Of a stretch of 64,000 nt of DNA, positions 39,829-64,000 are shown piece by piece. Below the pieces are notes generated by a model, which worked only from the letters and a program-made list of their open reading frames with translations, had not been told where the DNA came from and made no database searches. Both the position numbers and the translations under genes were made by a program. This stretch comes from Setophaga petechia (Eukaryota > Chordata > Aves > Passeriformes > Parulidae). The stretch covers positions 35,643,924 through 35,707,923 of the forward strand of contig JANCRA010000006.1 of the NCBI GenBank assembly GCA_024362935.1. Direction: 5' to 3'. The stretch's first letter is position 1, and each line of letters starts with the position of its first letter.

Positions 39829-39839
39829 GGCGTTTGCTA

Positions 39840-41057: not shown

Positions 41058-41346
41058 CTTTGGACAGGAATAGGGCTTCTGATAGGGAATATAAGCAGAA
41101 TTTGTTATCTTTATGATGAGAGGGAATTCTGCCTTGTCCTTTTCTGTGTTCCCCCCCCTCTCCCCCCCCCTTTTTCTTTTAATTTCTAATCTACACTAAG
41201 GGAGGAGGAGTTGGTTGGGGGTTAGGGGTTTTAAGGGTTAGGATGAGGGAAGTAAAAGGGATTTTTAAAATACAAAACATAGTGTAATAACACATAATTC
41301 AGAGAACACTTCAGTGTTAAGGCTATCCACGGCCTGATACAGCAGA

Positions 41347-42357
41347 CTATTTTTTAACTTTCTGTCTTGTCTGCTGTCTTGTAATGGGGTGGTCTGTTCT
41401 TGTGTTTGTGGATGTTCGGCGACGTCTTCGTCTCCAGGCGGAGCTGGTTTGGTTCTGAGGTGGTCTTGTGTTTGCCTCTGGAGAGTTCTTGTCTCCATCT
41501 GCAGAGGTAGTGTTCACAGGGCCTAAGTATGGTTTCACATATTTTCCTGGGTACCACCTTGGACCAAATGATAATAGCACACATGCATACCCTCTTCCCC
41601 AGGTGATCAACTGGTGAGGCCCTGAAATCTGGTGTGTTTCAGGGTCCTTCACGAGCACAGGTGGCTTCTCAGTGAGCTTTGCTTGGGTGGTATTTGCAAA
41701 GTGGCGAAGAATTGGTGGGTCAGGCTCTGATGCTGTACAGTTCAGGAAGTTGATGACATAGAGAGCCTTGCAAACTCTTTCCACTGGAACTGTGGCTTTT
41801 GTGTCCCTGTTCTGTTGATCGAGGACTCTTTTGAGGGTTTGATGTGTCCTTTCCACGATGGATTGTCCTGTGGGGTTTACAGGTATGCCGGTCTTGTGCA
41901 CTATGCCCCATTCATTGAAGAACTCCTTTAACTTGTTGGAGGTATAGGCTGGTCCATTATCTGTTTTAATCTCCTTTGGTACACCCAGAGTGGCAAAAGC
42001 GAGGAGAAAGTGTTTCATTGTGTGCATGGACTTTTCTCCTGCATGTGTTGATGCAAATACAGCTCCTGAAAATGTGTCAACCGATACATGCACATATTTT
42101 GACTTTCCAAAAGGTGCAAAGTGAATTACATCTGTCTGCCACACCTGACAGCTACTCAGACCTCTGGGATTGACTCCCGTCCCCATAGATGGTATTTGGT
42201 AGCTTTGGCAATTTGGACATGTAGCTACAATCGCCTTTGCCTGCTCCTTTGAGAGTTTAAACATTCTCATAAGGGCAGGTGCATTTTGATGGAAAAATGT
42301 GTGAGACAACTTTGCCTGGGCAAAGATGTCAGGAACATTAGCAGTTTGTACTGCCAT
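41347..42357 (-). pseudogene. ERV-2 integrase region of pol
   Basis: The 336-codon open part includes the zinc-binding HHCC domain (HTFFH ... CPNC) and the catalytic core with QTDVIHF, KTDNGPAYTS and VERTHQTLK, which supply the D, D and E of the DDE triad, plus a basic C-terminal domain. The domain itself looks intact, but it is out of frame with the upstream RNase H, so Pol is broken. It is the best preserved enzyme segment of this provirus. Confidence 0.85.
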
Positions 42358-43991
42358 TGCTAATGCATCTGCTTTCTTGTTGCCTTCTGCAACAAAACCT
42401 GGGAGGTCCGTGTGTGAACCTCACATGCATTATGTGGTAAGGTTGCTTTCTGTTAGAGATCAGTTGTATTAATTTAGAGATCAATTGGTACAACCTTGGA
42501 TTAGAAACTTCCTTAAGAAGTGCATGTTCTGCTCTCATAGCTATTCCTGCAACATAGGCAGAGTCTGTGACTAAATTGAAAGGCTCGTTTTTAAATTTAT
42601 CAAAGGCTCTGACAACAGCTGCTAATTCTGTCATCTGTGGTGATCCTTCCATCACTAGTACATCAGACTGCCAATCTTATGTCTCTCCAAGTAATCACTG
42701 ATTTGTGAGAGGACACGGAGCCGTCTGTAAAGAGGGTTAGAGCCTTGAGAGGCTTTCTGCTTTGGATTTGCTTAGGAATCAAATGAAAAGTTTCATTCTT
42801 GTTAAAAAGTTTGTGTTCTGGGATATGTGCTGAGATTCTACCCATATAACTCTCCAAGGCAAATTGCAAGCTCGCATTGGTCTGAAATAAATCCTCAAAG
42901 TCCTTAAGAGTTATAGGCAAGTATATGTATTCAAAATCACAACCTGAAAGGGAGCAAAGGCAAGTTCTAGCCTTTTTTATTAAGTGTGCTATAACCTCCT
43001 GGTAGGTGGTAAGAGTCTTTGTAGGCTGGCTACTTGTAAAAACCCATTCCAGTATCAACAAAGGGTCTCGCAGCTGATGGTCCCATTGGAAAATCAGTCC
43101 ATGGAATTGGGGTGCTTTTCCCAGAACGACGAACTGGAAAGGCAGACTGGGCTCGTAGCAATGGGCTTTGCGTGAAGACAGGGCTTCCTGGACTTTGATG
43201 ATGGCACCTCTGGCTTCTTCTGTGAGAGTGCAGGGAGAGTCCAGGTCCTTGGGTCCACGGAGGAGATTGAACAAGGGGGCGAGGTCCTCTGTTGTAAGTC
43301 CTAGCAGTGGACGTACCCAGCTGATGGATCCGCACAAGCTGTGTAAGTCTCTCAGGTTTTTTGGGTCGTCTCTGATTACAATCTGCTGGGGAACGATGGT
43401 CCTTTCCCGGATCTGGACTCCAAGGTAAGTCCATGGCTCAGTGTACTGGATTTTGTCCTCATGAATCTCCATTCCAGCCTTTTCTATGGCTTCAATAGTC
43501 TTTTTAACTGTAGTGTCCAAATAAGCTTTGTTTGAAGCGCACACCAGAATGTCATCCATATAGTGATATATTATAGCGTCTGGAAATGATTTCCGAATGG
43601 GAGACAGGATGTGAGCTACGTATCGCTGACAAATACTAGGGCTGACCTTTAGTCCTTGAGGAAGGTATAGCCAATGATATCTTTTAAGCGGGCCCTCCTT
43701 GTTAATGGAGGGAACGGAGAAAGCAAACCTTGGAGCATCTTCAGGGTGCAGTGGAATGCTGAAGAAACAGTCCTTAATGTCTATGAGAGCGAGTGTCCAG
43801 TCCCTAGGCAGCATCGATGGGGAAGGCAGGCCAGGCTGGAGAGGGCCCACGTCCTCGACGATTTTGTTGTTTCTGTGAAGGTCGTGGAGAAGGCACCACC
43901 TATTTGTCCCAGGCTTTGGTAGAACAAATACAGGAGAATTCCAAGGGCTGTCGGATTCTACTATGTGGCCTCTCTTGAGTTGTTCTTCCAC
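42338..43991 (-). pseudogene. ERV-2 reverse transcriptase and RNase H
   Basis: 442 codons (42663-43991) are open and hold RT with KRGHIVESDSPWNSPVF, LPQGLKVSPS and the catalytic YMDD (in YHYMDDILVCAS). RNase H starts with LTLFTDGS. A frameshift near 42660 moves the rest of RNase H (SPQMTELAAV and LVTDSAYVAG, 42338-42655) to another frame, and a further shift precedes integrase. Confidence 0.88.
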
Positions 43992-44164
43992 AAGTTCATT
44001 TAGAATGCGCAGTTTGGCTTTTAGGGACCACTGCTCCTGCCAGATGGGGGTGTGGCTTTTCCGGGTGATACGAGGTGTGTCTGGTAGTGCACTTACCTCA
44101 GTGGCCCCAGTTAGAAATCATGGGTGAGAATACGTGGAGAAGCTCCCCACTGGGATAGAACATC

Positions 44165-44530
44165 TCAGCCCCAAAGGGTGATGGGGGCCCTTACCACAAA
44201 TGGTTGGATGGTTGCTAGCTTGCCTTCCGGTCCTTCAACAAGAAGGCTGTTTTTGCTTTTCATGGAAACCGTAGTTCCAATAATCCCAGTAATCATGCCT
44301 GCAACAGGTTGTAGATCCCAGTGTGCTGGCCAATCTGAAGGGGTGATGATGGTCACGTCAGTTCCTGGTGTCCAACATCCCTGGCAGGTGGGTCTTCTCT
44401 CCTTTGCAAGTGATGCCACATTCGATTTTAGGCTTGGACAGTCCCATGACTTGTGCCCACATAGCTGTAGGGTTGAGAGGGATCTGTTCCCTGTGACTCT
44501 TTGGGAGTAAAAAGGCCTGTGCAATCGGAG
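44165..44530 (-). pseudogene. ERV-2 protease, active site disrupted
   Basis: An aspartic-protease-like fold segment (GTDVTIITPSDWP ... GIIGTTVSMKSKNSLLVEG ... LWGRDVLSQWGA) is visible. The catalytic L-D-T-G loop is split: the bases for L-D-T lie in one frame and G-T-D-V-T in the next, separated by one extra base near 44372-44390. The enzyme would not form in either frame. Confidence 0.65.
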
Positions 44531-44557
44531 TTCCCTTAGAAAGAAAAAATGGTGAGT

Positions 44558-44743
44558 CTATGCAAAAACCTGAACCAGGATCTCTTGACCTGGCTGCACT
44601 GTCATCACTTCTGGAACAACAAAGATTTCTTTTGGCCCATTAGGAGAATCATCCATAATTAAAATGTCTGAAGGAGTACCTTTAGGTCCATATTTGCCTG
44701 TGGGAACACGGTGAATATCCTTATTATTTAAGTCAATGGACAA
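44558..44743 (-). pseudogene. dUTPase-like segment of ERV-2
   Basis: The short frame has [19 protein letters not shown], resembling the start of a retroviral dUTPase (S-x-x-L-D-L ... PTG), followed by a PEVMTVQPGQEILVQV stretch. Its position between nucleocapsid and protease is as in betaretroviruses. It is shorter than a full dUTPase and lacks recognisable later motifs. Confidence 0.45.
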
Positions 44744-44748
44744 AGCAG

Positions 44749-47094
44749 TTACCAGTTGCCGCCGTGTACCGTTCCCGGTGGTCCTGAAGGCTGTCCCGTG
44801 GCTTGTCCCGTGGCTTGTCCCGTTGGCTGTCCTGTGGGCTGTCCTGTGAGTTGGTCCCCCCTCCTTGCGTCTGGAACGGTCCGGGCTGGTGCAGAATTGA
44901 GTCTGGGCGGCCTTTGATTTGTTGCCGTCGCCCGGGGCTCCATTGGGCTCCTCCAGGCATTTCCCTGACGCTGGTGGGAACGCTGCTGAAAATGGAGCTG
45001 GTTCTGGGGTCTTTGATAATAATTACGGTGGTATCGGGGGGGTGACCTCTCCGGACAGTCCTTTATATAGTGTCCAAAATCACCACAGTGATAGCATTTA
45101 GCTTGATCCTTAGAAGCTATTACTGCATAAGCACCAGAAACTCCTTCAGCAATACCCTTAGCGACTGCTTGTGCCACTGTATTTTCAGTGGACATATGAC
45201 GCGAGCAGTGTTCTAACATTTGTTCAATGGTCGGGTCTGATTCCAGTGTTAAGGGCCTCAGAATAGCTTTAAATTTTTCATTCGAGTTACTCAAAGCAAA
45301 CCTACATAAAAGTTCCTTTCTAGCCTCTGTGCTTTCAATTTGCCTCTTACAAGCGTCTTTCAGGCGATCAACAAATTGTATAAAGCTCTCATCCAAGCCT
45401 TGCCTAATAGTAGCAAAATGCATAGTGGGTATAGCATCATCTCGTAAAAGAAGGATGGAGGTTTTTGCAGCTAGGGCAATGTCCTGCAAGGCATCTTTAG
45501 TCAATGTTTCCATTTGTTCCACTGGATTTTGCAAATTACCTTCACCTGCTAGCTGCTCTACTGTAAAGCTGGTCTTATTCTCATCAGCAGTATATGCATC
45601 TGATAATGTTTTTAGATGTTTTTTCCAATGCCTATCCTATAACAGATATTCTGCTGGCGATAGGAGGCATTCTGAAATATTTTTTACATCATGAGGAAGC
45701 AAAACATGTGCAGAGAACATAGCTTCTAATAGATTTCTAAAAATATGTGAACCACGTCCATGCTCTTTAGCTACATTACGTAGTTGTACCAATGCCTTAT
45801 TTGAAATCGGTTTCCAGAATTTATTAGAGGATTCTCCTCCGTTACGTCCTATTCTGTATTCAACAGGGAATGCAGTAATTTTCTGTGCCAAACCCCAGTC
45901 TCCTGCTCTGGTGGCTTCTATTTTAATATGAGCCCAAGGGTCTGTATGTATTATGTCGGTATCAGATTCATTAGAAGAGCTGTTATCATCTGAGTCAGGG
46001 TCGGCAACTCTAATGATGCACGGTTTAGGTGTTTTTACTTTTGCGGGGTTTTTTTCCAAAGGTTTCATTGGGCAGCCAGGCGGTGACGGGGCGGGAGCAG
46101 GGATAGAGATGCAGAAGAACTGCGGGCGGGTGGGGGGGTTGTTATTGCGGGGGGTCCCAGGCTCGGTCGAGTGGCAGGGGGTTTGGGGCAGGGGCTGGAG
46201 GGGTATACAGGGGCAGGGATGTACGCACGGGGTGTTTTGGGGTGAGCAGGCAGGCATTGCAGGTGCAACCGGAGCCGCGGCGGTGTTGGGCGGGCTTTGA
46301 GTGGCCAGCAGGGGTGGGGGGGGTTCCCCGGCGGCGCGGAGCTGGGGAGGGGCGGCGCAGGGCTAGGGGAAAGCGGGGTGGGGGCGGGCGGGACGTGGGC
46401 GTGGAGCGGGACGGGAGCGGCGGGCAGGACGTGGGCATGGACGTAGGCGGGGAGCGGGATGGGGGCAGAGACAGGGATCGCGACGGGGCCGGGCTGGGGC
46501 GTGGGCAAAGCTGATACAAGAGCGGGAAGGGTGGGGGGAGAGGGGAGCGACGGGGAAGCAGCGGGTGGGGAATGGTGGTCGGCAAATGCGGGGGGACTCC
46601 GACCGGGGGGGGGGATGGAGGGGTGACCGGTCTCAAGGACGGATATAAAGCAGGAAAGGGGGCCCCCATGAGGCTATTGTTCTGTCCGGAATCCGTTACC
46701 GGGATGTGAGGGTCTGTGATAGATAAACCACATTACTCACTGATTTATCAGTGTTACTCTTTGGCTCTGTAAGAGTTTCAGAGTTAACCCTTTCGAAGCT
46801 TTTAGTTATAATGTGAAATAAAGGTAAGTAATTAGTGACCGAAAAATCCTGTTTAATTTGAGAAAGGTACAGAGCCGTGCCTACTTTGTCCCAGAAGGCA
46901 TTCTCGATAATTGTGGACATATTAGTATCGGTAAATTGTGAAACTATCCAGCCCACGAAACCTTTTAGAGTGTTCTAGGAAAGCCTACCCTTAGAGAAGC
47001 GGAATTTCTTATCAGATAACTTTTCCAGGATAGATAAATATATCTCTCTCTCAAGTGTGGTTAATTTCAGGGTACTGAAACAAGTCCCCATGGT
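44749..47094 (-). pseudogene. ERV-2 gag (matrix, proline-rich linker, capsid, nucleocapsid), broken
   Basis: It starts at 47094 with M-G-T-C, a myristoylation-type N-terminus, and the matrix-like region runs to about 46696 with an in-frame TAG near 46970. A very GC-rich proline-rich linker (46670-46070) follows. The frame 45637-46257 ends in capsid sequence at an in-frame TAG and continues in the same frame at 45534 with the capsid major homology region (IRQGLDESFIQFVDRLKDA) and one CCHC zinc knuckle (CYHCGDFGHYIKDC, near 45060-45100). Near its end is a T-G-Q-(P/A) repeat. At least two stops prevent a full Gag. Confidence 0.82.
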
Positions 47095-47362
47095 AAAATT
47101 TCACCCTTCCTACAGAAAAAAAAGAGAAAAAGGAAAAGGAACAGAACAAAAAAAAAAAAATAGAAGCTCGAAGGATTTTTGCGTGCAATTTTAAATCATA
47201 ATTACGTCCTTTGGGCTTCTTCTGAGGAAAGGGAATCTACCTAACTCGATCTCCTTGAACGAACTTCCTTCCGAAGTAAGTTTTAAGGGCCAATTCGAGT
47301 TTCCCGTCAGGAGGTTTTATAAAACGAAAGGTCCTCTTTTCCGGACACCAGGTTCTCCGAGC

Positions 47363-49990
47363 AACTGGGAGCAAATCACAGTGTTTCACCCACATGGCAT
47401 TCAGTGGCTTGAATGTGTGAAGAGGCAAAAGAGCTGAAAGGCAGCGTCTGTGATTTTGGGCTCATCTTGAATGTGGTGGGTTGGCTAAAGCCTTCTCCCC
47501 TTTTGATCTTGCAGGAGGCTCTGGAGATGTTGCTCTCAGGGGGGCCTCCAACAGCTGCAGGCCAAGCCATGGCTGATTATCATTACACAGGTAAGCAAAG
47601 CAGAGCTTCTTCCTTCACTGACAGCTGCTGCCGTCCCCTTCATTCTTGTGGCAAGCATTTCTGCTTCAACAAACTGTGCTTCACAGCAGCACAAGGTCTT
47701 GTCTTCTCAGGGGCTGGGGAAAGCACCAGCATCTAGTCCTTCTGCTTTACTTCTTTTCCAATCCTTTTCCCGGGGGAATGCCTGCTCCTGTCTTCACTAC
47801 CTTCTGAGGGAGCAGACACCTACACACACGTCAATGAGGGCCTGCCAGGATTTTCTGTCGGCAGCCAGCGGGATCTGCCTCACGTGCATCAAGGGATCCA
47901 TTCACCTGCTGCTTTTTATTGCCAGGCTCTGAGAGATGGACACCTGAGGAGAAGGAGTCCTTCCAAAAGGCTTTGCACACCTACGACAAGGATTTTCATC
48001 TCATCCACAAGCAGGTAAAGCCACGGGACATTCTTTAGCCGAGCAGTTCATCAGGAGGAAAGCTGGCTTCTTTCTGGTAGCAAACACTGGCCTTCAGTCT
48101 CTCTCTTCTCAAGTCCCAAGCATGTTCAAGTAGTAACAAAATGGGACATCAAAGGCCTTTGTGAAAAGGATGATCCTGCCTCTGCGGCCCTTTTCTCCAA
48201 GCTCTTGTGGAAGATGAAGCTTGATTCTGTCAGGCCCTTCGCACAGATTTGCTGCTGCTTCCACAAGACCTTGTGCTGCCATAACTGGAGTGAAGCGGGA
48301 AAGAAGAAGTGTGCTAGATGGATTTGTTGTTGATCTGTGCATGACGTGTGCTACCACCTAGCATAAGACACGGTTTACTACATTGCATGATGCCTCTCTT
48401 TCTCCATGTTGATTTCATTTGACACCCTACTCCCTTTACTTCATGATTTCACTTCCTAGTTTCCTCCATATTCGACTTTTTCCCCAATGCACCCTACTCC
48501 ACTTTAGACTCCTTCTTTTTCTCTTGACAACAGATCCAGACTAAGACCGTGGCACAGTGTGTGGAGTACTACTACTCTTGGAAAAAGGAGCATCAACTTG
48601 CCAGCACTCTTGCTCAGGTGAGGGGGAAGAAAGTCCAGACGTGCCAGGAGGGTGGAGAAACTGGGGGAAGGGGAGAAAACCTGCTGGCGAGCCATGCCAG
48701 ACGCCGCTTTGCCAGGATGGCATCGTCCCATGCCATGGGAAAGGCACGGCAGAGGCTGCCCAGGGCTTCCTCATGCTGCTGCCCTGAAAGACGCAATTCT
48801 GGAGCGTAACTTTGAGCCAAGAAAGCAGCACTGCCACCAAAATGGGCCTTGACTCTCTACAGATGGCTTTCTCAAGGGCTGGCACCCTCGCTGACTCCAA
48901 TCACACCCTTCATTCCCCACTGCTTGCTGACATCAGCAATCCGGGCTGCCTTCGTGGATATGCTGCAGATTTTCAGGGAGATTTTGTAGCATGCCAGCAT
49001 CCTCCCAAGAAGCAGCTGCCGGTGCTGCGGCTCCCCTAAAACTTTCCTTACCAGCAAAGAGCAATTTGGTTCACATAGCGAGAGAGAGAGAGAGATTCTT
49101 TTGGGTTGTATAAAATGCCTAACCATGTGTCTTCCCTAATTTGACTGGATTTCAATCCCATTCCCTAGAAATTGATGGAAATGTCAAACCCTCATACTTA
49201 TCCCAGCCCTTTGGCCCGTAGAAAACAGGAGTATTTCCCTCCAAGCTCTGGCTTGGCAGCCCGCCGCAGCCCACTGGCAAAAAACGCAGCCGTTTCCTCA
49301 GCTCTTGCCGGTTTGGAAGGATTTGCTTAGGCCGATAGATTTTTCTGCTGGATGCCCTGATTCCCAGCTTGCTGAGAGGAAGGAAAGATTGATAAGGATT
49401 CATTGATTTCCAGGGTGTGGGCCAAGCAAAGAGCAGCAAAAGCCCCCCCAGAAAGGAGAATGGGGAGACAGGCAAGAGAAGCCGCAAGAGGGCTCGCAGC
49501 GCCAACTGTCCCTGCTGCCAGCCGCGCCAGCCGCCCCGTTCGACGGGAGGCCCCTTTCCCTGCGGGCAGTGCCAACGGTGCGCAAGTTCCTCCTCTTTCT
49601 GCTCAAAGCTGCGGCTTTGGACTAAAACAGGGTGACCCTTTGCATCGGCACCGCAGGGCAAGCTGGGGGCACTTGCAGCATGGCCCCTCGCAGCCGCGCT
49701 CAAGCTTACAAGCCACCTCAAACCCAAGAAGCTTCCTTCAAACCCAGCATTCACCATGAAACCTTGCCGTGCCCCAACAAGACACAGTTCATGCAAGTGT
49801 AGGAATAGATCCATCCAAGCTTGCTTTGATGCTGTTGCTCAAATTCAAAATAGGAATAGGCAGCCAAAAGGAGGAAGACTTTTCATGGCACTGCAACAAG
49901 AAAGATCGCACTCATGGTGCTGATCCATTAACAAATGTGCCACTGCCCAAAAAGACAGAAATTCACACTAAAACCGAGATCTTGGTCCTT
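47363..49990 (+). repeat. Direct duplication, copy A (partner 61495-64000)
   Basis: From about 47363 the sequence matches 61495 onward almost base for base, introns included, with scattered substitutions and short indels, up to where the window ends in copy B. The left border of copy A is the ERV-2 leader. High intron identity means a recent duplication or ongoing gene conversion. Confidence 0.92.
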
Positions 49991-51640: not shown

Positions 51641-52275
51641 TGTATCTGTTTAGGTTTAGTGTAAATTTGGGAAAAAATTTTTTAAAGTGGCTTTTGTGAG
51701 AAAATAGATTTAATTGGCTTTTTTTTTTTTTTAATTGGTCTGGGAGGAAAACAGTATTTTTTTGGAGAAAGGTGGAAAAAAACTGTTTATTAAATAATAA
51801 AATTAAAATAATATTAATAATGAGAAAATTTTTTTTTCGGGTTGCAGCTTATTTAGTTTTTGATTAGTTTTTTTAGTGCTGGAATTGTCGCAGGCTAGGC
51901 CTGGCTCGGTGGGCTAGAAATGTGAGCTGCTGGTGCTTTTCTGAGTGTTTAATTTAGAGCAGGTTTTAAACGGTTTAAAGAAAAAGGGAAAAGGAAAAAA
52001 AAAATTATAGTCTAGGGCATTTTTTTGCTTTAGCTTGCTGAAAATTTATTAAAAAGTTAAAAAGCGCTTTGTTTGTAGTTTTTTGTAGACAATAACTGCC
52101 GGCCCGCAGAAGGAATGTGGGGGAGTGACAGGAGTATTTGGAGGGAAAAAAAACCCCTGCATTTTCTCTTCTTCTTCACTGTCTGCAATAAGGCTTAAAG
52201 GTGCAAAACTTACTATTTGGCACGTACAGAACAAGACGATTTGGGATAAAAGCATCATACAGCTAACTTAGGACA
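51641..52275 (-). mobile_element. 3' LTR of ERV-3, hypermutated
   Basis: 635 bp from TGTATCTG to TTAGGACA on the + strand. In the block 51851-51876 all seven C residues of the matching 5' LTR block (57901-57926) are T and nothing else differs; six of these are in TC and one in AC context. C after G (GC) is largely retained. Confidence 0.9.
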
Positions 52276-52292
52276 TTTCACTTTTTATTTTT
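52276..52292 (-). other. Polypurine-tract-like run next to the ERV-3 3' LTR
   Basis: The minus strand is pure A/G apart from two T residues immediately before the LTR start, as expected for the plus-strand primer. G-to-A editing may have made it A-rich. Confidence 0.4.
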
Positions 52293-52649
52293 ATATTGTT
52301 TGCTTATTACTAAAATTAATATAAATTTTAACTCTTTAAATACATGCATTATACATTCATTATACAGCTATATACAGACAATGGCAATAGCATTCAGTAA
52401 ATAGTGATATTTACACATAGGTTTTATCTAATAATCAGATTTCTTTGAGGTACATATCGTGTTTTTCTATCTTTTTGTATTATTTATTATGTGCAACTTG
52501 GTTTTTGAGCAAAAATAATTCTACGAATGGGTTTGTTAGTATTCGAGGCAGAGTTAATTTAAACTGTTTTCTTTAATAAATTTTTGATATGTACTACTGG
52601 GACTTTGTCTTTATTCACTTTATGCAAAGGCTCAGACTGGGCAGGGCTT

Positions 52650-53400
52650 ATTTGGTTAGTAGAGCTTCGGGTGTTAACTAACTAGGTGGCTTTTGCTAGA
52701 TGCTGCTCTCAGTTTTTGAAAGTTTTTCTACTTAATATTTTTAATGTGGTTTTTAACAGTCTGTTGTACTTTTCTACTTTGCCTGCAGCTGGTGCATGGT
52801 AGGGAATATGGTACACTTACTTAATGCTATGTTCTTTAGCTCAGGTGTTGATAAGGCTGTTCTTGAAATGAGTCTTATTGTTTGACTCAATCTTTTCAGG
52901 GGTACTATGTCTCTACAGAACTTGCTTTTTAAGGCTTAGGATGGTGTTCTGGGCTGTAGCATGAGGCACAGGGTAGGTTTCTAGCTATCTCGTGGTGGCT
53001 TTTACTATTGTTAGCACATAGTGCTTGCTTTGGCGTGTCTGGGGCAGGGTGATGTAGTTAATTTGCTAGGCTTCTCTATACTTGTACTTGGATTACTGTT
53101 TACTATACTACAGGGGCTTCACTCACTTGGCCTGCTTGATGGCAGCACACGTCTTACAGTCATGAATAACTTGAGAAATACTGTTTATGGTTAGATCTAT
53201 TTCTCGGTTTCGTGCTTACTTATAGGTGGTATTCTTGCCCTGATGCCTTGAGGCATCATGGGCCTATCGAGCTAGGAATAATTAATTTTTATGGTTTTAA
53301 TCTAAATTTATCTTTGACACTTTTATTTTTGCAGCTTGGTCTACTTGCTTATTGTTTTGGTGCTCTTTATTAGTTTTACTCTTGGGAACATGGGCATCTA
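52650..53400 (-). pseudogene. ERV-3 integrase traces
   Basis: Minus-strand frames show a zinc-domain-like segment (SRHQGKNTTYK ... CKTCAAIK) and catalytic-core segments such as YVLTIVKATTR, ESNNKTHFK and PAAGKVEKYNRLLK. The region around the second catalytic aspartate reads NN rather than the family DN, in line with G-to-A change. Many tryptophan positions are stops. It is unable to encode an enzyme. Confidence 0.65.
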
Positions 53401-54299
53401 TATGGCGGACTTTCACAGGCAGTTTTTTTTACTTTGTTAGCAATGTCTTTTTACTCTTCAGCAGCTTAAATTGTTTTTTTTTTACGTTGCTAGTTAGCTT
53501 TTTTTTATTTTTCTAGCTATCTTTACAGAGCATTGGCTACTATTTATGAATTAGTGTAGAGGTAGAGCTTTGGCTATTTTTCTTTCTCAGTAATGTCTAG
53601 GGCCAGCTGAACGGCTTTGAGTTCAGCAAGTTGGCCTGATCTACATTTTTTTTTTAGTGGTTTCTGCGACTTGTCGTGTGGGGCTTTATACAGCTGTTTT
53701 TTACTTCTGGTTCATTCTTACAATGCAGCAAGAACTATTAGTAAAGAGAGCGTATTGTGTATTTTTTGCTGGAAGTTGGTTGTATGGTGGAGCTTCTTCA
53801 GCTTGTGTCACTTTTTGGTTTTTTTTATCAGCGAGACTAAAGTTTTCACTTTCTGGCTAGTTTGTAATTATTTTTAGAATTTTAGGGCGATTTAGTTTTT
53901 TAATACGGGCGCGCTGTGTGATAACAGCAATCTGTTTGCTCTATGTAGTACTGGTGGCATGGTACGTAGAGGGAACTTTTGCTTTGAACATTTATTTTAG
54001 TATTGGTAGTTGAGGTGCTAGGAGGAGTTGTGCTTCAGTCTTTATTATTTTTGAGGCAGCTTGGACTTTTTCATAGGCAGCTAAGATTTCTTTCTTTGTA
54101 GGAGTATAGTTGGCTTCAGACTTTCTGTAGCTTTGATTTTAAAATCTTAGTGGTCGGCTTTGAGTCTCCCCAGGCACTTTTTGCTAAAGGCTCTAGGACA
54201 AGCTATGGTTCTCGGCTGCAGAGTAGAGCATGTTTTTCATTTTTGGTTTTGTTTTGACTGGGCTAAGGGCTACCGTATGAGCAATCTTTTGCTTGATCT

Positions 54300-55250
54300 G
54301 TGCAAAGGTTTGTTGCTGTTTAGGGCTTTAGTGGAAAGTGGTTTTTTTACGGGTGACTAGATAGAGAGGGTTCACAATCTGACTGTATTCGGGAATATGC
54401 ATCTTCTAAAAACTTATGGCGCTTAGGAAAGTTTGTGTTTTTTTCTTACTGGATGGTGGAGACATTGCTGTGATCTTGTTGATGACATCGGTGGGAATTT
54501 GACGCTGTCTGTTTTGCTACTTTACTCTTAGAAACTGGATCTCTTGGGCAGGTTTTTTGACTTTGCTTTTTCTGATCGCGAAGCCAGCTTTTAGGAGAAT
54601 TTGGATGATTTTTTCTCTTTTTTCGAACACTTCTGCTGCTGTCTTCTTTTATACAATGATGTCATTAATATATTGTAAATGTTCTGGTGCTTCACTCTTT
54701 TTTAGTGCAGCTTGGATCAGTCTATGGCAGATGGTGGAGTTGTGCTTCTACTCTTGGGGCAGTTGGTTTTAGGTGTACTGCACGCTTCTCTAGGTGAAAG
54801 CAAACTGAGGTTTGCATTCTGCTGCTAGAGGAATGGAGAAAAATGCATTGGCAATGTTTATAGTGGTGTACTACTTTGTTGCTTTGGACTCCAGCTCGTA
54901 CTGGAGTTTCAGCATGTCTGGCACAGCAGCGTTTAGTGGTGGAGTCACTTTATTCAATGCACGATAGTCTACTGTCAGTTTCTATTTTCTTTTAGATTTA
55001 CGCACAGGCCAAATTGGGCTGTTGAAGGGTGAGTGGGTCTTGCTAACTATCTTTTGGCTCTCTAGCTTATGGATCATTTTGTGGATGGGAATCACAGTAT
55101 CTTGATTCGTTCAGTATTGTTGGTGGTGCACTGTTGAGGTGGCAATTGGCACTCGTTGCTTTTCTATTTTTAGGAGTCTTACTGCAGATGGGTTTTCTGA
55201 TAGTTTAGGTAAATTGTTTAACTGTTTGATACTTTCTGTCTTTATAGCAG
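54300..55250 (-). pseudogene. ERV-3 reverse transcriptase, catalytic motif altered
   Basis: HLQYINDII at about 54652-54680 aligns with the RT catalytic box; YIND (54661-54672) has asparagine where the first aspartate of YxDD belongs (GAT to AAT). Upstream, the Y-T-W ... LPQG box reads YT, stop (TAA, 54769-54771), NQLPQE. Both changes are explained by G-to-A. Confidence 0.78.
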
Positions 55251-55259
55251 TTATTCTAA

Positions 55260-55530
55260 ATGCTTATTTGAGTTTTTTTGGGTCTTTGAAATACTCACTT
55301 TGAAGATAGTTTATGCTTAAAATACATGGGGCTTTTGGGCTAGTTATGATAGGATGTTTCTTCTACTCATTTTTAGTCAAGTTCACATCAGCTTCTACTA
55401 AAGTGAAATCTTGGGATTTTTTTGTTACACTAGCAATGGAGACAGACTCTGTCTCCTCATGTCTCAACGGAATTATTGTACATTGTGCACTTGTATCAAC
55501 TAAAGCTTTATACTCTTGTGGTTTTGATGT
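55260..55530 (-). pseudogene. ERV-3 protease, catalytic motif altered
   Basis: The segment ALVDTSAQCTIIPLRHEE is the retroviral aspartic protease active-site loop with DTS (55489-55497) in place of DTG. GGT to AGT is a single G-to-A. A stop follows about 40 codons later. Confidence 0.72.
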
Positions 55531-55699
55531 GTTAGGCTAATGAATATACACAGACTAGAAAACACGATTTTCTCTGGCTTTTACTTGGCTAGAGGTAGGG
55601 CTTTTTTAAGCCTGGTTATGGTTTTTTTTTTTGGGGATATGTTTTGGATGTTTTTTTAAGGGGATCGGACATGTTATCATTATTATATTTGGTAGTTTG

Positions 55700-57230
55700 G
55701 CTATGGGCAACTGGAGCTGGTTTTTTTTTGGTGGCTTCTTTTAATTCATGCACTCGTCGTGCTAGAACAGCAGTAGGTTTTCTATTTCACTTCTTTATGT
55801 TTTTTCTACAATTACGCAGGTAGAACTATAACTCATTTCGTGGGGTGTACTGTCTCTCACTACTTGGGAAACGTCTGCTTTGAATACTAGAATTTTTGAT
55901 TTGTACTGCTGATACTTGGAGAAGGTCTTCTTTAATTTCTTGTCTGAGCTTCTTATGATTTTTTTTTATCTTATTTTTTAATTTTTGCAGACGTGTTTTT
56001 ACTGCTGAGATTCTGGCATGTGTTGGGTCATGCACAGCATCTGCATATGCTCGGAGCTTCTTTGCTATATTTAGCACAGTCTCTTCCCTCTCATCTCTTT
56101 TTATTATGGCTAAGGCAGAAGCATATTCATGTGGCCCAAGTCGCACAAGTTTTCGCTACATTACAGGCGTGTATGGTACAAGGTTTGGGTTCTTAGTTGT
56201 TTCATCATCTGAGAAGATAATCTTTGCTACTACTATTTTTCTTAGGCGTTGGATCTTTTGCTTTATGGTCTTCTACTGAGTTTGTTGCATATAAAGATCA
56301 TCTGCACACAGGTATCTTTGTGCAACACTATTTAAGACTTGTGACTAGAGGCTGCGTGGATTAGCTTCTTTCATCATTCTTTGGTCGATGACAGGATTTT
56401 GTGACAGGGACTTCAAACGCTTCGCTTTAGTGTTATTTAGAATTGTAGCTTTGCTTGCAGTATTTTAGAGACGAACTAACTAACTAATTGTGGATTTATT
56501 AGGTCATCGGGTGTAATCTTTTTGTAGGCTACGAAGGTTTTTTAGGGAAAAGGTTTTAGTATTTGCGTTTGATCTTGCACTTGCTGCTTTGACTTTTGAT
56601 TTTACGTCAGGAGGCATCGAGGTTCTTTTTCTTGTATCACTATCATTATTGTTATCATTTGTTGGTCGATTAGTTTTTCCTGTGAGTTTCTCACTTCTAG
56701 TACTGGTAGTAACAGCTATGGGTTTAGATGCTGGTTTAGGTTCACTGTTTGGTTTGGCTGCAGGCTTCGAGTCTGGGCTGTTGGCTACAGCTTGAGTGAC
56801 TGGGATAGCTGATTTATCTCCCTGCCCCCCTGCTTTTGTTTGCTGCTTTACACTATCTAATAAAGTGCGATAAGCGTAGGCTAGGGCTTAGCTTATTGCA
56901 ATAAGCTTCTTTTCTTTAGAATCGTCATGGCACTTCTTTTTTAGGTATTTCTCTACTTTAGCTGGGTTTTGAATTTGTTCTCGTGGAAAATCTCAGTTTA
57001 CAGGATCAGAAAATTTTTTCAGGGTTTGGCTTATATTTTCTTATTCTTTACACTATTTAGGATTTTTCACACTTGCATCTGATTTTGGGTCAGGGGTCTC
57101 ACTAGCTTTTCTGGATATCTCAGCTTTTACTCTAGAGAGGCTACAGATAACATAGAGGAAGCTTATTAGATTAAATACTAGAAAGATGGTCTCTAATATT
57201 TAGGGGAAACTGATCATTCTCAAAAAGTGA
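55700..57230 (-). pseudogene. ERV-3 gag remnant
   Basis: The longest remaining open part (55826-56146) is lysine/glutamine-rich and helical (HEYASALAIIKRDEREETVL at its start). It is placed between leader and protease, so it is Gag by position, probably late capsid/nucleocapsid. No intact zinc knuckle was found. Stops are frequent elsewhere. Confidence 0.5.
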
Positions 57231-57668
57231 CATCAGAGATCTAGAGGAGAAGAAGGAAAAGAAAGGCTGGAAAGCCATATTTTCGGTTCTTCTTGTATTA
57301 GACTGAGTGTAATTACTAATAAATTTTTAAAATGTATTACTGGAATTGGGATGCAGGGTAGGATGAAGGAACTATAAATTATACATGTTGTAAACAGACG
57401 CTAGTATCTTTGTAAACGCTTTATAAATTATTATCACTAAGGCTAGCACAACAGCTATTCTAATTTGTACTCTTGTACTGCAAAAATTACGTGTTGTGGA
57501 TTATATTTTTAGTGACAAGAAAGGCATTGAAATTTTAAAAAGATCTTGAGCTTAGAGCCACACAAAGGCTTTTACTTCTAAGGACATTATGGATTTAAAC
57601 AGCATGTCTATTAACTGCTTTAATAATTACAAACACACAATTAATAGAGCTTTTTTTTACATTTTCGA

Positions 57669-57686
57669 GCCCCACGTTAAGCGCCA
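57669..57686 (-). other. Primer binding site of ERV-3 (tRNA-Lys1,2 type, variant)
   Basis: The minus strand reads TGGCGCTTAACGTGGGGC four bases after the LTR end. It differs at two adjacent positions from TGGCGCCCAACGTGGGGC, the Lys1,2-type site used by several betaretroviruses. The two differences are C-to-T on the proviral strand, opposite to the editing seen elsewhere. Confidence 0.75.
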
Positions 57687-57690
57687 ATTA

Positions 57691-58337
57691 TGTATTTGTC
57701 TAGGTTTAGAGTAAATTTGGGAAAAAATTCTCTAAAGTGGCTCCAGTGAGAAAACAGATCCAATCGGCCCCTCCCCCCCTCAACTAGTCCGGGAGGAAAA
57801 CAGTACTTCCTTGGAGAAAGGTGGAAAAAAACTGTTTATTAAACAATAAAACTAAGACAATATCAAACAATGAGAAAACCCCCTCCCCGCGTTGCAGCTC
57901 ACTCAGTCTTTGATCAGTCTCTCTAGTGCTGGAATTGTCGCAGGCCAGGCCCGGCCCTGTGGGCCAGAAATGTGAGCTGCTGGTGCTTCTCTGAGTGTTT
58001 AATCTAGAGCAGGTTTCAAAAGGTCTAAAGAAAAAGCGAAAAGGAAAAAAAAAAAACAAAAAACAACTACAGTCTAGGGAACTTCTTTGCCTTAGCTAGC
58101 TAAAAACTCACTAAAAAGCCAAGAAGCGCTCTGTCCGTAGTCTTCTGCAGACAACAACAGCTGCCCCACAGAAGGAATGTGGGGCAGTGACAGGAGTATC
58201 TGGAGGGAAAAAAAACCCCTGCATTTTCCCTCCCCCTTCACTGTCTCCAATAAGCCTTAAACGTGCAAAACTTACTATTTGGCACGTACAGAAGAAGACG
58301 ATTTGGGATAAAAGCATCATACAGCTAACCCAGGACA
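57691..58337 (-). mobile_element. 5' LTR of ERV-3, largely unedited
   Basis: 647 bp from TGTATTTG to CCAGGACA on the + strand, with TG...CA ends and an AATAAAC poly(A)-type signal. It keeps the C-rich blocks (for example 57770-57781 and 57879-57890) that are T-rich in the 3' LTR, so it serves as the reference for scoring edits. Confidence 0.9.
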
Positions 58338-59008: not shown

Positions 59009-62000
59009 ATGTCAAAGGTAAGAAAATCCCCCTTTGCCCTCAAAGCACTCACACGAGGGCAGGAGGCTCCAGCTGCCTCTCCCACCAAGCACCACACACT
59101 GGCTGCGTGCTCACTTTCTCACTTTCCCCAGACCAGCTTCCACATGAAAGCAGGCTGCAGCTTCTGAAGGCATCATCTTGCCTCCAGGGGAAACACACAC
59201 CTTTCCTTAGAGGACGTAGACAGGTGTCACAGTGCACTTGCAGGTCCTCGTCCACGGAGGACCTGATTCAAAGCTCTCGGCAGCCATTTCACTCCTAAAA
59301 CTCTCTTGTGGTGACCCCAAAACAATTTGTTCATGGCTCAGCAGTTCAGGGGCTCAGTCTCTACAAATGCCCTTATGCCCTGACTCTGCTCACACCTGCT
59401 GCAAAGCTTCAAAAGCAGAATGTGGCACTTCTCCTCTGGGATCCCTGTGGTTCAGGGCGTGGAAGCATTTTACTGCGCTTCTCCTCAAACAAAGGCTTTC
59501 AACTTCAAAACTGATCTGCTATCAGCAATTCTGATAGACTTGCATAGTTACGATCGCTTCTAGATACATTCTCTTCTAATATCTTCCTAGATCATTTTTT
59601 CAATGCATGTAGGGCTGCTTCTGCCTCATGCTTAGGGGCAGCTGTGAAATGCCATCTTCTCAGGAACACCATCACAGCAGCACAGAAACTTCTGGCTTGG
59701 AAGGGATTCTCAAAGATGATGGAGCCCAGCTCCAAGGCCTGCACAGAGCAGCCTCAGCAACCACACCCTGTGCCCAAGGGCAGTGTGCAAAGACTGCTGC
59801 AGCTCAGTCAGGCTTGGTGCTGTGACCCCTTCCCTGGGGAGGCTGTTGCAGTGCCCAAGCAGCCTCTGGGTCAAGAAGCGTTTCCTTGTAGCCAACCTAA
59901 GCCTGCCCTGGCACATCTTCCAGGCCCTTCTCCTGGCTCTTGTCAGCAGTCCCAGGTCTGAAGAGACTAGTGCATGGCCTTCTGCTTCCCCTCCTGAGGA
60001 AGCTGCTGACTGCTAGAGGCTCCTGCCTAGGAAATTCCACCTCCAAAAGGCGGCAATGACACCAAAGAGAAAGGAGCTGGGACAGAGGAGCTCAGGCTTT
60101 GCAATGATGAGGAGGATGAGAAGGAAGGCTACTGACACATCCTGGGCAGAAGGAGTTTTAACGGGAGCATTGTTTTGGTCTCTTTCAGGTGGAAAGGAGA
60201 GGCACAATCAAAAGGAAAGCAAGAGCCCACATTGAGCCGTGAGTTTTGGCCTAGGGTTAAAGGACAGCAAAGTGGAGGAATGGCCAGGAGGAGATGTGCT
60301 CTTTCAGAGTCAGGCTGGGATTGCTTCAAGCCTGTGGCTCCACAGAAAGGCTCTCTTGATCACTTGCCCTTCTTCCCTGCACCTCCTTCTTCCTTTAGAC
60401 ACATCAATGTTGGCAGCGACTTTCAGGCTGAACTCCCAGAGCTGCAGAGCAGACCAGCAAGTGAGGATGAAGAGCCTGCAAGCCTGGTCTGGAAGCCCTG
60501 GCAGGAAGATGACTCTGACATGCAAAAAGCTGACAGAGGTAGCTTTGCTTCAAGCTTTCCTTCCACCCGTGACATACTTGGGTCTTTCAAAGGCCGCTTT
60601 TGCGGCAAAAGGCGGCCTTTTGCAGGCTCTGCTTCTCTCCTTGTCTGGTCCATCTTCCCGTGTAGAAGTGTGAGAGGCAAGGAGAATGCTCTGCTCTTGC
60701 AGCAGAGCAGGAAAAGGAGCAAGCATCTTGCTCTCCAAATTGCTCAGGGCCATTTGCTACTGGATGAGGGGAGATTGGGCCTCACTTCTTATGACACAAG
60801 CTGCTTTGAAGGGAGAGCCAGCACTGCGTGGGCCCTTGGCTCAGCTGGCGCTGTCTTTACTCTCCTTTTCCTGCTCTCCTAGCTGCTGTCTTTAGCTCCT
60901 GGGCTTTCCTTCTGCCTTGCAGGGCAACCTTTGCCCTGCCTGGCCTCAAGGCTGATTTTCGGTGCCTTTTTCTTGTGCTTGCAGTAAGAGAACTGTTGGA
61001 CGTGGCCAGCTCCCGTGGCGTTGCCGGGGCAGCAGCTAACCTGGAGCGCGCCCTGCACTGCCTGCACCAGGCACGCGGCAGCGTTCCGGTAAGAGGCGGC
61101 TGTTTGGGCGCAGAGAAGAGGAGAGGGCACAGGGAATGCAGAAGAGGCGGCCACTGGGACAGCCTTTCCTGGCTGCTCTTTGAAGAAGGGTCTTAACAGG
61201 GAGCAGAGCACTTGCTGCCTGCTGTGTCTCCTCCAGCTGCGCCAGGGCTCAGCCCAGACGGCTCCAGCAGGGACAATCTCCCTCTTGGAGGCGGCGGCGG
61301 CGCAAGCTCCTGCAGCCTGCTGCCTTGTAAATGGCCCGGAGATCTGGCTTCTCCAAGACATTTGGAGGGCAAATTGCACGAAGCCTCAGTCAGCTGAGGC
61401 CATTCTGGGTGCAGGAGCAGCAAAATCATTAGGTTGCTGAGCAAAATGCCACTCTTGGGGACCAGGATCAAAGGCTTGGGCAGCAAAAACTAGCCACTGG
61501 GAGCAAATCACAGTGTTTCACCCACATGGCATTCAGTGGCTTGAATGTGTGAAGAAGCAAAATAGCTGAAAGGCCGCGTCTGTGATTTTGGGCTCATCTT
61601 GAATGCGGTGGGGTGGCTAAAGCCTTCTCCCCTTTTGATCTTGCAGGAGGCTCTGGAGATGTTGCTCTCAGGGGGGCCTCCAACAGCTGCAGGCCATGCC
61701 ATGGCTGATTATCATTACGCAGGTAAGCAAAGCAGAGCTTCTTCCTTCACTGACAGCTGCTGCCGTCCCCTTCATTCTTGTGGCAAGCGTTTCTGCTTCA
61801 ACAAACTGTGCTTCACAGCAGCACAAGGTCTTGTCTTCTCGGGGGCTGGGGAAAGCACCAGCATCCAGTCCTTCCGCTTTACTTCTTTCCCAATCCTTTT
61901 CCCGGGGGAATGCCTGCTCCTGTCTTCACTACCTTCTGAGGGAGCAGACATCTACACACACGTCAATGAGGGCCTGCCAGGATTTTCTGACGGCAGCCAG

Positions 62001-64000
62001 CGGCATCTGCTTCACGTGCATCAAGGGATCCATTCACCTGCTGCTTTTTATTGCCAGGCTCTGATAGATGGACACCTGAGGAGAAGGAGTCCTTCCAAAA
62101 GGCTTTGCACACCTACGGCAAGGATTTTCATCTCATCCACAAACAGGTAAAGCCACGGGACATTCTTTAGCCGAGCAGTTCATCGGGAGGAAAGCTGGCT
62201 TCTTTCTGGTAGCAAGCACTGGCCTTCAGTCTCTCTCTTCTCAAGTCCCAAGTATGTTCAAGTAGTAACAAAATGGGACATCAAAGGCCTTTGTGAAAAG
62301 GATGATCCTGCCTCTGCGGCCCTTTTCTCCAAGCTCTTGTGGAAGATGAAGCATGATTCTGTCAGGCCCTTCGCACAGCTTTGCTGCTGCTTCCACAAGA
62401 CCTGGTGCTGCCATAACTGGAGTGAAGCGGGAAAGAAGAAGTGTGCTAGATGGATTTGTTGTTGATCTGTGCATGACGTGTGTTACCACCTAGCATAAGA
62501 GACAGTTTACTACATTGCATGATGCCTCTCTTTCTCCATGTTGATTTCATTTGACATCCTACTCCCTTTCCTTCATGATTTCACTTCCTAGTTTCCTTCG
62601 TATTCGACTTTTCCCCCAATGCACCCTACTCCTCTTTAGACTCCTTCTTTTTCTCTTGACAACAGATCCAGACTAAGACCGTGGCACAGTGTGTGGAGTA
62701 CTACTACTCTTGGAAAAAGGAGCATCAACTTGCCAGCACTCTTGCTCAGGTGAGGGGGAAGAAAGTCCAGACGTGCCAGGAGGGTGGAGAAACTGGGGGA
62801 AGGGGAGAAAACCTGCTGGCGAGCCATGCCTGACGCCGCTTTGCCAGGATGGCATCGTCCCATGCCATGGGAAAGGCACAGCAGAGGCTGCCCAGGGCTT
62901 CCTCATGCTGCTGCCCTGAAAGACGCAATTCTGGAGCGTAACTTTGAGCCAAGAAAGCAGCACTGCCGCCAAAATGGGCCTTGACTCTCTACAGATGGCT
63001 TTCTCAAGGGCTGGCACCCTCGCTGACTCCAGTCACACCCTTCATTCCCCACTGCTTGCTGACATCAGCAATCCGGGCTGCCTTCATGGATTTTCTGCAG
63101 ATTTTCAGGGAGATTTTGTAGCATGCCAGCATCCTCCCCAAGAAGCGGCTGCCGCTGCTGCGGCTCCCCTAAAACTTTCCTTACCAGCAAAGAGCAATTT
63201 GGTTCACATAGCGAGAGAGAGAGATTCTTTTGGGTTGTAAAAATGCCTAACCATGTGTCTTCCCTAATTTGACTGGATTTCAATCCCATTCCCTAGACAT
63301 TGATGGAAATGTCAGACTCTAGATACCCTCCTATTTATCCCAGCCCTTTGGCCCGTAGAAAACAGGAGTATTTCCCTCCAAGCTCTGGCTTGGCAGCCCG
63401 CCGCAGCCCGCTGGCAAAAAACGCAGCCGTTTCCTCAGCTCTTGCCGATTTGGAAGGATTTGCTTAGGCCGATAGATTTTTCTGCTGGATGCCCTGATTT
63501 TCAGCTTGCTGAGAGGAAGGAAAGATTGATAAGGATTTTTTGATTTCCAGGGTGTGGGCCAAGCAAAGAGCAGCAAAAGCCCCCTCAGAAAGGCGAATGG
63601 GGAGACAGGCAAGAGAAGTCGCAAGAGGGCTCGCAGCGCCGACTGTCCCTGCTTCCAACCGCGCCAGCCACCCCGTTCGACGGGAGGCCCCTTTCCCTGC
63701 GGGCAGTGCCAACGGTGCGCAAGTTCCTCCTCTTTCTGCTCAAAGCTGCGGCTTTGGACTAAAACAGGCTGGCCCTTTGCATCGGCACCGCAGGGCAAGC
63801 TGGGGGCACTTGCAGCATGGCCCCTCGCAGCCGTGCTCAAGCTTACAAGCCACCTCTAACCCAAGGAGCTTCGTTCAAACCCAGCATTCACCATGAAACC
63901 TTGCCGTGCCCCAACAAGACACAGTTCATGCAAGTGTAGGAATAGATCCATCCAAGCTTGCTTTGATGCTGCTGCTCAAATTCAAAATAGGATGCAGCAA
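59009..64000 (+). CDS. ELM2-SANT-C2H2 gene copy B (ZNF541/TRERF1-like), 3' end outside window
   Basis: Exons: 59009-59017 (candidate start ATG-TCA-AAG before GTAAGA, low confidence), 60189-60238, 60399-60538 (HINVGSDFQAELPELQ, LVWKPWQEDD), 60985-61088 (VRELLDVASSRG, NLERALHCLHQARG), 61647-61722 (EALEMLLSGGPP), 62058-62146 (RWTPEEKESFQKALHTYGKD), 62666-62749 (IQTKTVAQCVEYYYSWKKEH), 63551-63714 (basic, ending FPCGQCQR). The final exon would fall near 64183, beyond the window, by analogy with copy A. All phases agree. The order is a complete ELM2 domain, a SANT domain, a basic linker and half of a C2H2 finger: about 270 residues, far shorter than ZNF541 or TRERF1, with their N-terminal fingers absent. 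ELM2-SANT proteins bind class I histone deacetylases in nuclear corepressor complexes. Which paralogue it derives from, and whether it is expressed, are open. Confidence 0.78.
59692..59950 (-). mobile_element. CR1 LINE 3' fragment in the first intron of copy B
   Basis: TTGGAAGGGATTCTCAAAG at the 3' end, followed by CTTCCCTGGGGAGGCTGTTGC and GCGTTTCCTTGTAGCCAACC, is diverged antisense CR1 sequence. It has no effect on the exons. Confidence 0.7.
61495..64000 (+). repeat. Direct duplication, copy B (partner 47363-49990)
   Basis: It starts at CACTGGGAGCAAATCACAGTG, where the upstream sequence of the two copies diverges, and runs to the window end. Replacement differences in the exons are few (for example T/A before the SANT exon, D/G in the SANT helix, and C/F and N/D in the basic exon). 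Confidence 0.92.

What the first reader, a model, noticed from the sequence alone, without database searches (positions are those of the whole stretch)
51641..58337. A provirus carrying massive strand-specific G-to-A hypermutation in a bird genome
Direct comparison of the two LTRs shows that the left (3') LTR has T where the right (5') LTR has C, almost one way only on the + strand. In 51851-51876 versus 57901-57926, seven of seven C residues are T and no other base differs. The element lies on the minus strand, so this is G-to-A on the retroviral sense strand. The interior is C-poor and T-rich throughout. Edited C residues follow T, C or A, and C after G is mostly spared, so CpG decay is not the explanation. 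Cytidine deamination of minus-strand cDNA by an APOBEC/AID-family enzyme is the known process that gives this pattern. Birds lack APOBEC3, so the enzyme would have to be an APOBEC1-like or AID-like protein. Edited LTR elements have been reported in some bird genomes, but this copy looks extreme.
Basis: partly seen in the sequence, partly recalled or inferred. Interest (0 to 1): 0.88.

Follow-up and report, generated by a model that had tools for sequence, protein, structure and literature searches.

The report
Bird provirus scarred by DNA-editing defence
An old retrovirus in a bird genome was heavily damaged by a DNA-editing defence enzyme while it was still being copied into DNA, and the scars, which differ between its two ends, suggest which strand was bare at which stage of the copying.

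Summary
The provirus (51641-58337, minus strand) carries massive sense-strand G-to-A change. Against 39 other LTR copies from the same genome, 75 of 78 LTR C/T differences are changes of the 3' LTR; against four unedited interiors, 636 of 679 interior changes are + strand C>T (121 per kb), 15 are G>A. Context is CC > TC > AC > GC, neither CpG nor AID's WRC.

The 5' LTR is lightly edited (14 C>T, 13 shared with the 3' LTR); the 3' LTR has 76 more of its own, near saturation at its U5 side and fading towards U3. Seven of eight edited proviruses examined show this 3'-LTR excess; the eighth is a 0:0 tie. One, on contig C69, also has 17 opposite-strand edits in its 5' LTR only, 16 in CC. This fits the strand separation of the second strand transfer of reverse transcription.

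Hyperedited bird LTR elements and, in mice (2025), 3'-LTR-specific editing are known; the density, the gradient inside the LTR and the reciprocal edits extend them. The genome has AID, APOBEC2 and two APOBEC1-like exons; no APOBEC3 was found. An APOBEC1-like editor is inferred.

The parts
51641..58337 (-). hypermutated provirus; 5' end at right, 3' end at left
   Evidence: LTR pair; relatives of gag/RT pieces on minus strand
51641..51646 (-). 6-nt tail beyond the usual LTR end, 5 of 6 like the leader next to the 5' LTR; if counted in, the 5-bp target duplication is GGTGG/GATGG (4 of 5)
   Evidence: inference
51647..52275 (-). 3' LTR: 76 C>T of its own plus 13 shared with the 5' LTR
   Evidence: 74 and 13 on another set of columns
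52135..52275 (-). U3 tip of the 3' LTR: little edited (non-GC sites 5/22 and 2/7 against 22/23 at the U5 end); start approximate
52276..57696 (-). interior: 636 C>T of 679 changes against four unedited copies
   Evidence: 649 of 693 on another set of columns
53900..55615 (-). pol remnant with RT pieces (limits approximate; protease only by a Pfam match below cut-off); together with gag, 19 of 21 stops with 3 or more relatives lie at tryptophan
55618..57199 (-). gag remnant (limits approximate), broken by in-frame stops
57669..57686 (-). primer-binding-site-like sequence, 16 of 18 like the tRNA-Lys1,2 site; shares its two differing bases with copy C69 only, among nine copies looked at
   Evidence: canonical site printed in PMC8775094
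57697..58337 (-). 5' LTR: lightly edited on the minus strand (CC 12/51, TC 2/36, AC 0/27, GC 0/27)

Best explanation
A retrovirus-like element of this bird was reverse-transcribed in the presence of a cytidine deaminase that acts on single-stranded DNA and prefers CC, then TC. The enzyme deaminated minus-strand cDNA before integration. Light editing before plus-strand strong-stop synthesis was copied into both LTRs. The interior was edited while its minus strand waited for plus-strand synthesis. When the plus-strand strong-stop DNA moved to the other end (second strand transfer), the minus strand of the 3' LTR was laid bare, U5 first and U3 last, and was covered again from U3 towards U5. Its U5 side therefore collected edits, almost to saturation, that the 5' LTR lacks. 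In another provirus (C69) the transferred plus strand itself was edited in the opposite sense, on its U3 side. Shown: strand, direction, context, LTR difference, gradient, recurrence in independent integrations. Inferred: order of exposure, from the known steps of reverse transcription; identity of the enzyme, most likely one of two APOBEC1-like proteins encoded near AID.
For: Polarised LTR: 75 LEFT C>T of 78; LEFT-only 74 of 79 changes C>T; shared 16 changes, 13 C>T and 0 G>A. Interior: 636 C>T of 679; CC 344/405, TC 194/441, AC 45/267, GC 38/288. Gradient inside the 3' LTR: likelihood-ratio chi2 30, p 4e-8 with context held. 3'-only against 5'-only C>T in 8 edited LTR pairs: window 76/1, C341 22/0, C69 13/0, C54 4/1, C1 0/0, C153 45/4, C52 11/5, C64 5/1; pooled 176/12; sign test 7 of 7, p 0.016. 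C69: over all aligned columns its LTRs differ at 32 sites, 13 C>T in the 3' LTR and 19 G>A in the 5' LTR, nothing else; on the polarised columns 5'-only 17 of 17 sense C>T, 16 in CC, offsets 276-615, and 3'-only 13 of 13 minus-strand edits, offsets 11-92; same 5-bp target duplication on both sides. Editing rises towards the 3' end of the interior in the five copies measured. Host deaminases.
Against: The interior gradient of the window copy is weak (p 0.005 in fifths; p 0.028 with context) and the leader bin at 57376 is as edited as the 3' end (28/40 against 32/45). C1 is clearly edited (169 of 175 interior changes) yet has no 3'-only edits. C52, C64 and C153 were judged by their LTRs only and carry many other changes, so part of their C>T is ordinary: 5'-to-3' LTR differences C>T/T>C are 13/6, 5/1 and 55/6, with G>A 11, 2 and 8; C153's interior piece scores no higher than unedited copies. 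The window's target duplication is imperfect and needs an alternative LTR end. Its 5' LTR has six private sense C>G that the model does not predict. The opposite-strand pattern rests on one provirus. No enzyme was tested.
Confidence: 0.86

Rival explanations
1. The lightly edited 5' LTR was acquired by ectopic recombination or gene conversion with an unedited provirus.
For: No target duplication with the usual LTR ends; the two LTRs differ at 100 of 633 sites.
Against: Both LTRs share 16 derived changes, 13 of them C>T, 7 of those 13 in no other of the 39 copies; the LTR difference recurs in other proviruses, C341, C69, C54 and C153 among them with exact 5-bp duplications; recombination predicts no gradient inside the 3' LTR.
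Confidence: 0.04
2. AID edited the cDNA.
For: An AID gene is present.
Against: C after G is spared (LTR 2/27; interior 38/288); WRC 14/39 against SYC 39/55. That AID prefers WRC is recalled.
Confidence: 0.04
3. Ordinary decay after integration (CpG loss or repair-biased mutation).
For: Older copies also collect C>T.
Against: One strand only; CpG less edited than other sites; flanks and control duplicates mixed; C341 has 305 C>T among 311 interior changes.
Confidence: 0.01
4. Part of the edits were inherited from an already edited parent copy rather than made in this round.
For: The LTR edits shared by both LTRs could be inherited; edited copies share many interior sites (for example 149 between C341 with 305 and C69 with 237); the window and C69 share a primer-binding-site variant.
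Against: All copies crowd the same CC sites, so overlap is expected; overlap in the 5' LTRs is modest (6 between 14 and 19). No formal test was made. It cannot explain 3'-only edits.
Confidence: 0.2

Closest known systems
3'-LTR-specific G>A editing of endogenous MMTVs (Mtv17, 21, 61, 62), PMC12548423, J Virol 2025
   Same: G>A unique to the 3' LTR beside edits shared by both LTRs; the same displacement mechanism is proposed there
   Different: 13, 16, 2 and 9 distinguishing substitutions there, all but two of the 3'-specific ones in U3, by mouse APOBEC3; here 76, densest on the U5 side, in a bird where no APOBEC3 was found, and with opposite-strand edits in a sister copy. Seen: passages and section 7.
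Hyperedited bird LTR elements (Knisbacher and Levanon 2016)
   Same: Strand-biased G>A in songbird LTR retrotransposons
   Different: Bird values quoted are 71.5 and 57.2 G>A per kb (Table 3 in PMC12548423) against 121 per kb here, counted on another basis. Paper itself not held; seen only as quoted.
Mtv21, the most edited provirus in that table
   Same: 120.8 G>A per kb there, 121 here
   Different: Different host, enzyme and context; different reference for counting.
APOBEC3 editing of endogenous MLV (PMC2041998)
   Same: Strand bias before integration, stop codons, 5'-to-3' gradient
   Different: TTC context and mouse APOBEC3; CC here. Seen: passages.
C-to-T changes in 5' U3 and PBS of HIV under APOBEC3G (Yu 2004)
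   Same: Plus-strand editing where the plus strand is briefly single
   Different: Content recalled; only the title was seen, in reference lists. Cell culture there, germline copy here.

Membership tests
AID/APOBEC editing of retroviral cDNA | sense G>A far above C>T and above A>G | tested here: met
   636 against 15 (sense C>T) and 5 (sense A>G, seen as + strand T>C)
AID/APOBEC editing of retroviral cDNA | fixed dinucleotide context, not CpG | tested here: met
   CC 344/405 down to GC 38/288; CpG 37/114
AID/APOBEC editing of retroviral cDNA | made before integration: flanks spared, gradient along the cDNA | tested here: met
   the gradient is weak in this copy's interior
AID/APOBEC editing of retroviral cDNA | deaminase active in the host germ line | not testable with these tools
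   genes present; activity not testable
APOBEC3 | an APOBEC3 gene in the host | tested here: not met
   six APOBEC_N matches (9 candidates, 9 scored), assigned to four genes: APOBEC2, AID, two APOBEC1-like; the assembly may be incomplete
AID | WRC preference | tested here: not met
   WRC 14/39, SYC 39/55
APOBEC1 as the editor | CC-preferring ssDNA deaminase activity of the bird protein | not tested
   sequence only. First exon: Pfam APOBEC4_like 1.5e-48 and APOBEC1 1e-47; second: SNAD4 9e-36, APOBEC1 2e-23; best solved relative APOBEC-1 for both
3'-LTR-specific editing | edits in the 3' LTR absent from the 5' LTR, beside shared ones | tested here: met
   76 and 13
ERV3/ERVL group | 5-bp target duplication | tested here: met
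   exact in 10 of 11 other pairs (also C99 and C153), 4 of 5 in the window; the 5-bp rule was seen in PMC6523648. Phylogeny not tested, so not filed as a member.

The most novel reading that the evidence does not exclude
Bird proviruses preserve a strand-resolved record of the second strand transfer: minus-strand edits confined to the 3' LTR, densest on its U5 side, and, in C69, plus-strand edits confined to the U3 side of the 5' LTR. The editor is a bird APOBEC1-like enzyme that has independently reached an APOBEC3G-like CC specificity.
Probability: 0.55. Interest if true: 0.78.

Novelty: new variant of a known kind. Interest (0 to 1): 0.68.

Why it matters
Edits that differ between the two LTRs of one integration give natural marks of which strand was single-stranded during reverse transcription, something usually studied in cell culture. 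They also upset the common dating of proviruses by LTR divergence: the window pair differs at about 16 per cent of sites (100 of 633), mostly by edits that, on this reading, predate integration. And they point to a CC-preferring deaminase in a genome where no APOBEC3 was found, with two candidate genes that can be tested directly.

Tried and rejected
Rejected: AID (context), CpG decay (CpG less edited), recombination of the 5' LTR (shared edits, recurrence), change in the right instead of the left LTR (75 of 78 polarise to the left, 2 are ambiguous, 1 is a T>C of the right). Withdrawn on checking: I had read two sense C>T in the primer binding site, shared by the window and C69, as repeated plus-strand editing. 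One search shows that the site varies in the family and that these two copies also share a further base next to it, so a variant inherited together or another tRNA is as good. I no longer count it; the odds given rest on the LTRs and are unchanged.

Led nowhere: Pfam on 10 gag/pol pieces gave nothing above cut-off; PDB on one RT piece; scans of viral contigs with three proteins and one LTR pattern gave no relative; the segmental-duplication partner ends at 51492 and gives no empty site; no partner LTR was found for C177, C161 and the two C45 copies in the stretches fetched. The other ERV at about 39.8-46.7 kb served as a composition control only, since no LTR pair was found for it.

Dropped before counts: LTR columns with too few copies (under 30 of 39, or under 75 per cent of 36) or under 90 per cent agreement, gapped cells, interior columns where the four unedited copies disagree, and protein pieces under 18 residues. 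One search includes pieces in other frames that match one to four relatives. Comparing each piece with its best relative only gave a weaker bias, 73 G>A against 20 A>G. Edited copies were found with edited queries among the best 40 scored of 1198 and 460 candidates, so no prevalence is given; the within-pair comparison should not be biased by this, since the searches did not know which LTR was 5' or 3'. The 5' LTR of C64 aligned only to position 584 of 641.
Full report
Observation. The window lies in a bird genome that is held (G000, 1.22 Gb; window at C6:35643924-35707923). The two LTRs of the minus-strand provirus align over 633 sites with 78 right-C/left-T differences against 2 in the opposite direction. 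Duplicated segments of the same window show mixed spectra.

Polarity. With 39 further LTR copies, 75 of the 78 C/T differences are changes of the left (3') LTR, 2 are ambiguous and 1 is a T>C of the right LTR. On columns where at least 90 per cent of copies agree, the LTRs share 16 changes, 13 C>T and none G>A; the 3' LTR alone has 79, of which 74 C>T; the 5' LTR alone has 14, of which 1 C>T and 6 G>C. A later alignment with 36 background copies gives 13 shared, 76 and 1 C>T.

Interior. Quarters of five sister copies were fetched. Where four unedited copies agree (5239 columns) the window has 679 changes: 636 C>T, 15 G>A, 5 T>C, 5 A>G and 18 others, that is 121 C>T per kb. Context: CC 344/405, TC 194/441, AC 45/267, GC 38/288. 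On the five-copy columns, ACC 73/74 and TCC 133/141 are nearly saturated and CpG is edited less than other sites. Independently, protein relatives from birds, compared piece by piece on 761 majority columns, give 121 of 191 residue differences explained by sense G>A alone, against 7 by A>G and 11 by C>T; 31 of 39 stops, or 19 of 21 with three or more relatives, fall at tryptophan. With the single best relative per piece the ratio is 73 to 20.

Exposure levels in one molecule. 5' LTR: CC 12/51, TC 2/36, AC 0/27, GC 0/27. Interior: as above. 3' LTR, offsets 0-450 from the U5 end: CC 37/40, TC 25/28, AC 13/15, GC 1/18. 3' LTR, offsets 450-650 (U3 tip): CC 6/12, TC 2/8, AC 1/13, GC 1/9. The fall towards U3 is significant with context held. 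GC is always spared and CC leads, so one enzyme with different exposure is the simplest reading (inference). The U3/R and R/U5 limits of this LTR were not mapped.

Mechanism. In reverse transcription the plus-strand strong-stop DNA, copied from the minus strand of the 3' LTR, becomes the plus strand of the 5' LTR. Edits made before that copy reach both LTRs; edits made after it reach only the 3' LTR. Extension of the minus strand frees the 3' LTR from U5 towards U3, and plus-strand completion covers it from U3 towards U5, so U5 is bare longest. This matches the data; displacement of the 3' LTR minus strand is the mechanism proposed for endogenous MMTVs in PMC12548423 (passages, section 7). The detailed order is established knowledge of reverse transcription, recalled here.

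Other copies. Seventeen LTR pairs were examined (13, 4 more). Eight count as edited: five by interior and LTR (window, C341, C69, C54, C1), three by LTR alone (C153, C52, C64; shared C>T 9, 14, 14 against G>A 1, 1, 0). 3'-only/5'-only C>T: window 76/1, C341 22/0, C69 13/0, C54 4/1, C1 0/0, C153 45/4, C52 11/5, C64 5/1; pooled 176/12, sign test p 0.016. C99 is faintly edited (3 shared, 0/0). The eight unedited pairs have at most 1 on either side. In the six other copies with 3'-only edits, 91 lie below offset 450 and 9 above, fewer than the CC and TC sites there would give (p 0.0005; site numbers taken, not from C153's own subfamily). C341 is the cleanest in its interior: 305 of 311 changes C>T; over all aligned columns its LTRs differ by 23 C>T, 1 T>C and 1 A>G. 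C52, C64 and C153 carry many other changes, including 3'-only G>A 6, 2 and 6.

Opposite-strand edits. In C69 the 5' LTR alone has 17 changes on polarised columns, all sense C>T, 16 of 17 in CC, offsets 276-615; its 3' LTR alone has 13, all minus-strand edits, offsets 11-92 (p 8e-9 for the reciprocity). Over all columns the two LTRs differ by 13 C>T and 19 G>A and nothing else. Both LTRs are flanked by CCGTG. This fits deamination of the transferred plus strand, whose U3 end is copied last. It is one provirus. That HIV shows C>T in 5' U3 and PBS under APOBEC3G is recalled (Yu 2004), not read.

Primer binding site. The window's site is 16 of 18 like the tRNA-Lys1,2 site printed in PMC8775094. 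Of eight other copies one matches exactly, C69 has the window's two differences, and six have other variants; the window and C69 also share a base just after the site. The two differences would be sense C>T, but they may be inherited or come from another tRNA; I draw nothing from them.

Host enzymes. The APOBEC_N family finds four genes: APOBEC2 on C92, AID on C9, and on C9 two exons about 11 and 25 kb from AID on the other strand. The AID exon is closest to AID structures (5jj4, E 1e-53). For the other two exons the best solved relative is APOBEC-1 (6x91, E 7e-36 and 5e-19); in Pfam APOBEC1 scores 1e-47 and 2e-23 but is just behind APOBEC4_like in the first and well behind SNAD4 in the second. 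Both show HAE and PCxxC. PMC3880073 marks zebra finch and anole APOBEC1 as the only non-mammalian ones identified then (passages). Editing by one of them is inferred.

Novelty. Bird LTR hyperediting is known, with zebra finch among the highest. 3'-LTR-specific editing was described as first shown in 2025, in mouse. I found no report of it in birds, nor of plus-strand editing confined to the 5' LTR of an endogenous copy, in the listings; the library holds open-licence papers only.

Noticed in passing
57697-58337 (5' LTR): Six of 17 changes private to the 5' LTR are sense C>G, against 3 of 173 (+ strand G>C) in background copies (p 1.5e-5, cells of related copies counted as independent). Uracil excision on an edited plus strand could give this; unexplained.
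   Followed up: partly
57669-57686 and L052, L056, L057, L061, L068, L090, L091, L098: The primer binding site varies within the family; one of nine copies has the exact tRNA-Lys1,2 site, and the window and C69 share a variant.
   Followed up: partly
51641-51646: The 3' LTR end carries 6 extra nt resembling the leader; counting them in gives a 4-of-5 target duplication. A paper title on faulty plus-strand transfer and integration under APOBEC3G was seen in a reference list (Mbisa 2007); that it reports extended U5 ends is recalled.
   Followed up: partly
47360-49855 and 61492-63992: Segmental duplication at 96.7 per cent identity, cut by the window end; the partner's homology ends at 51492, about 150 bp from the provirus.
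   Followed up: partly
39800-46700: Second endogenous retrovirus on the minus strand with long open frames that look like gag, pol and env, and no strand-biased C loss of this kind; naming by eye, family not tested.
   Followed up: no
16120-16930 and 30755-31762: Frames that look like seven-helix receptors, perhaps olfactory, in inverted copies; naming is by eye.
   Followed up: no
L078 and L081 (C45:2633415 and C45:2520140): Two edited LTRs with nearly the same counts (C>T 32 and 33 of 52 and 54 changes) on one contig 113 kb apart, perhaps one insertion copied by segmental duplication.
   Followed up: no
L071 and L046 (C1:1698440 and C1:1704525): Edited provirus whose LTRs share 11 C>T, differ at 1 site in all, and lack a target duplication.
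   Followed up: no
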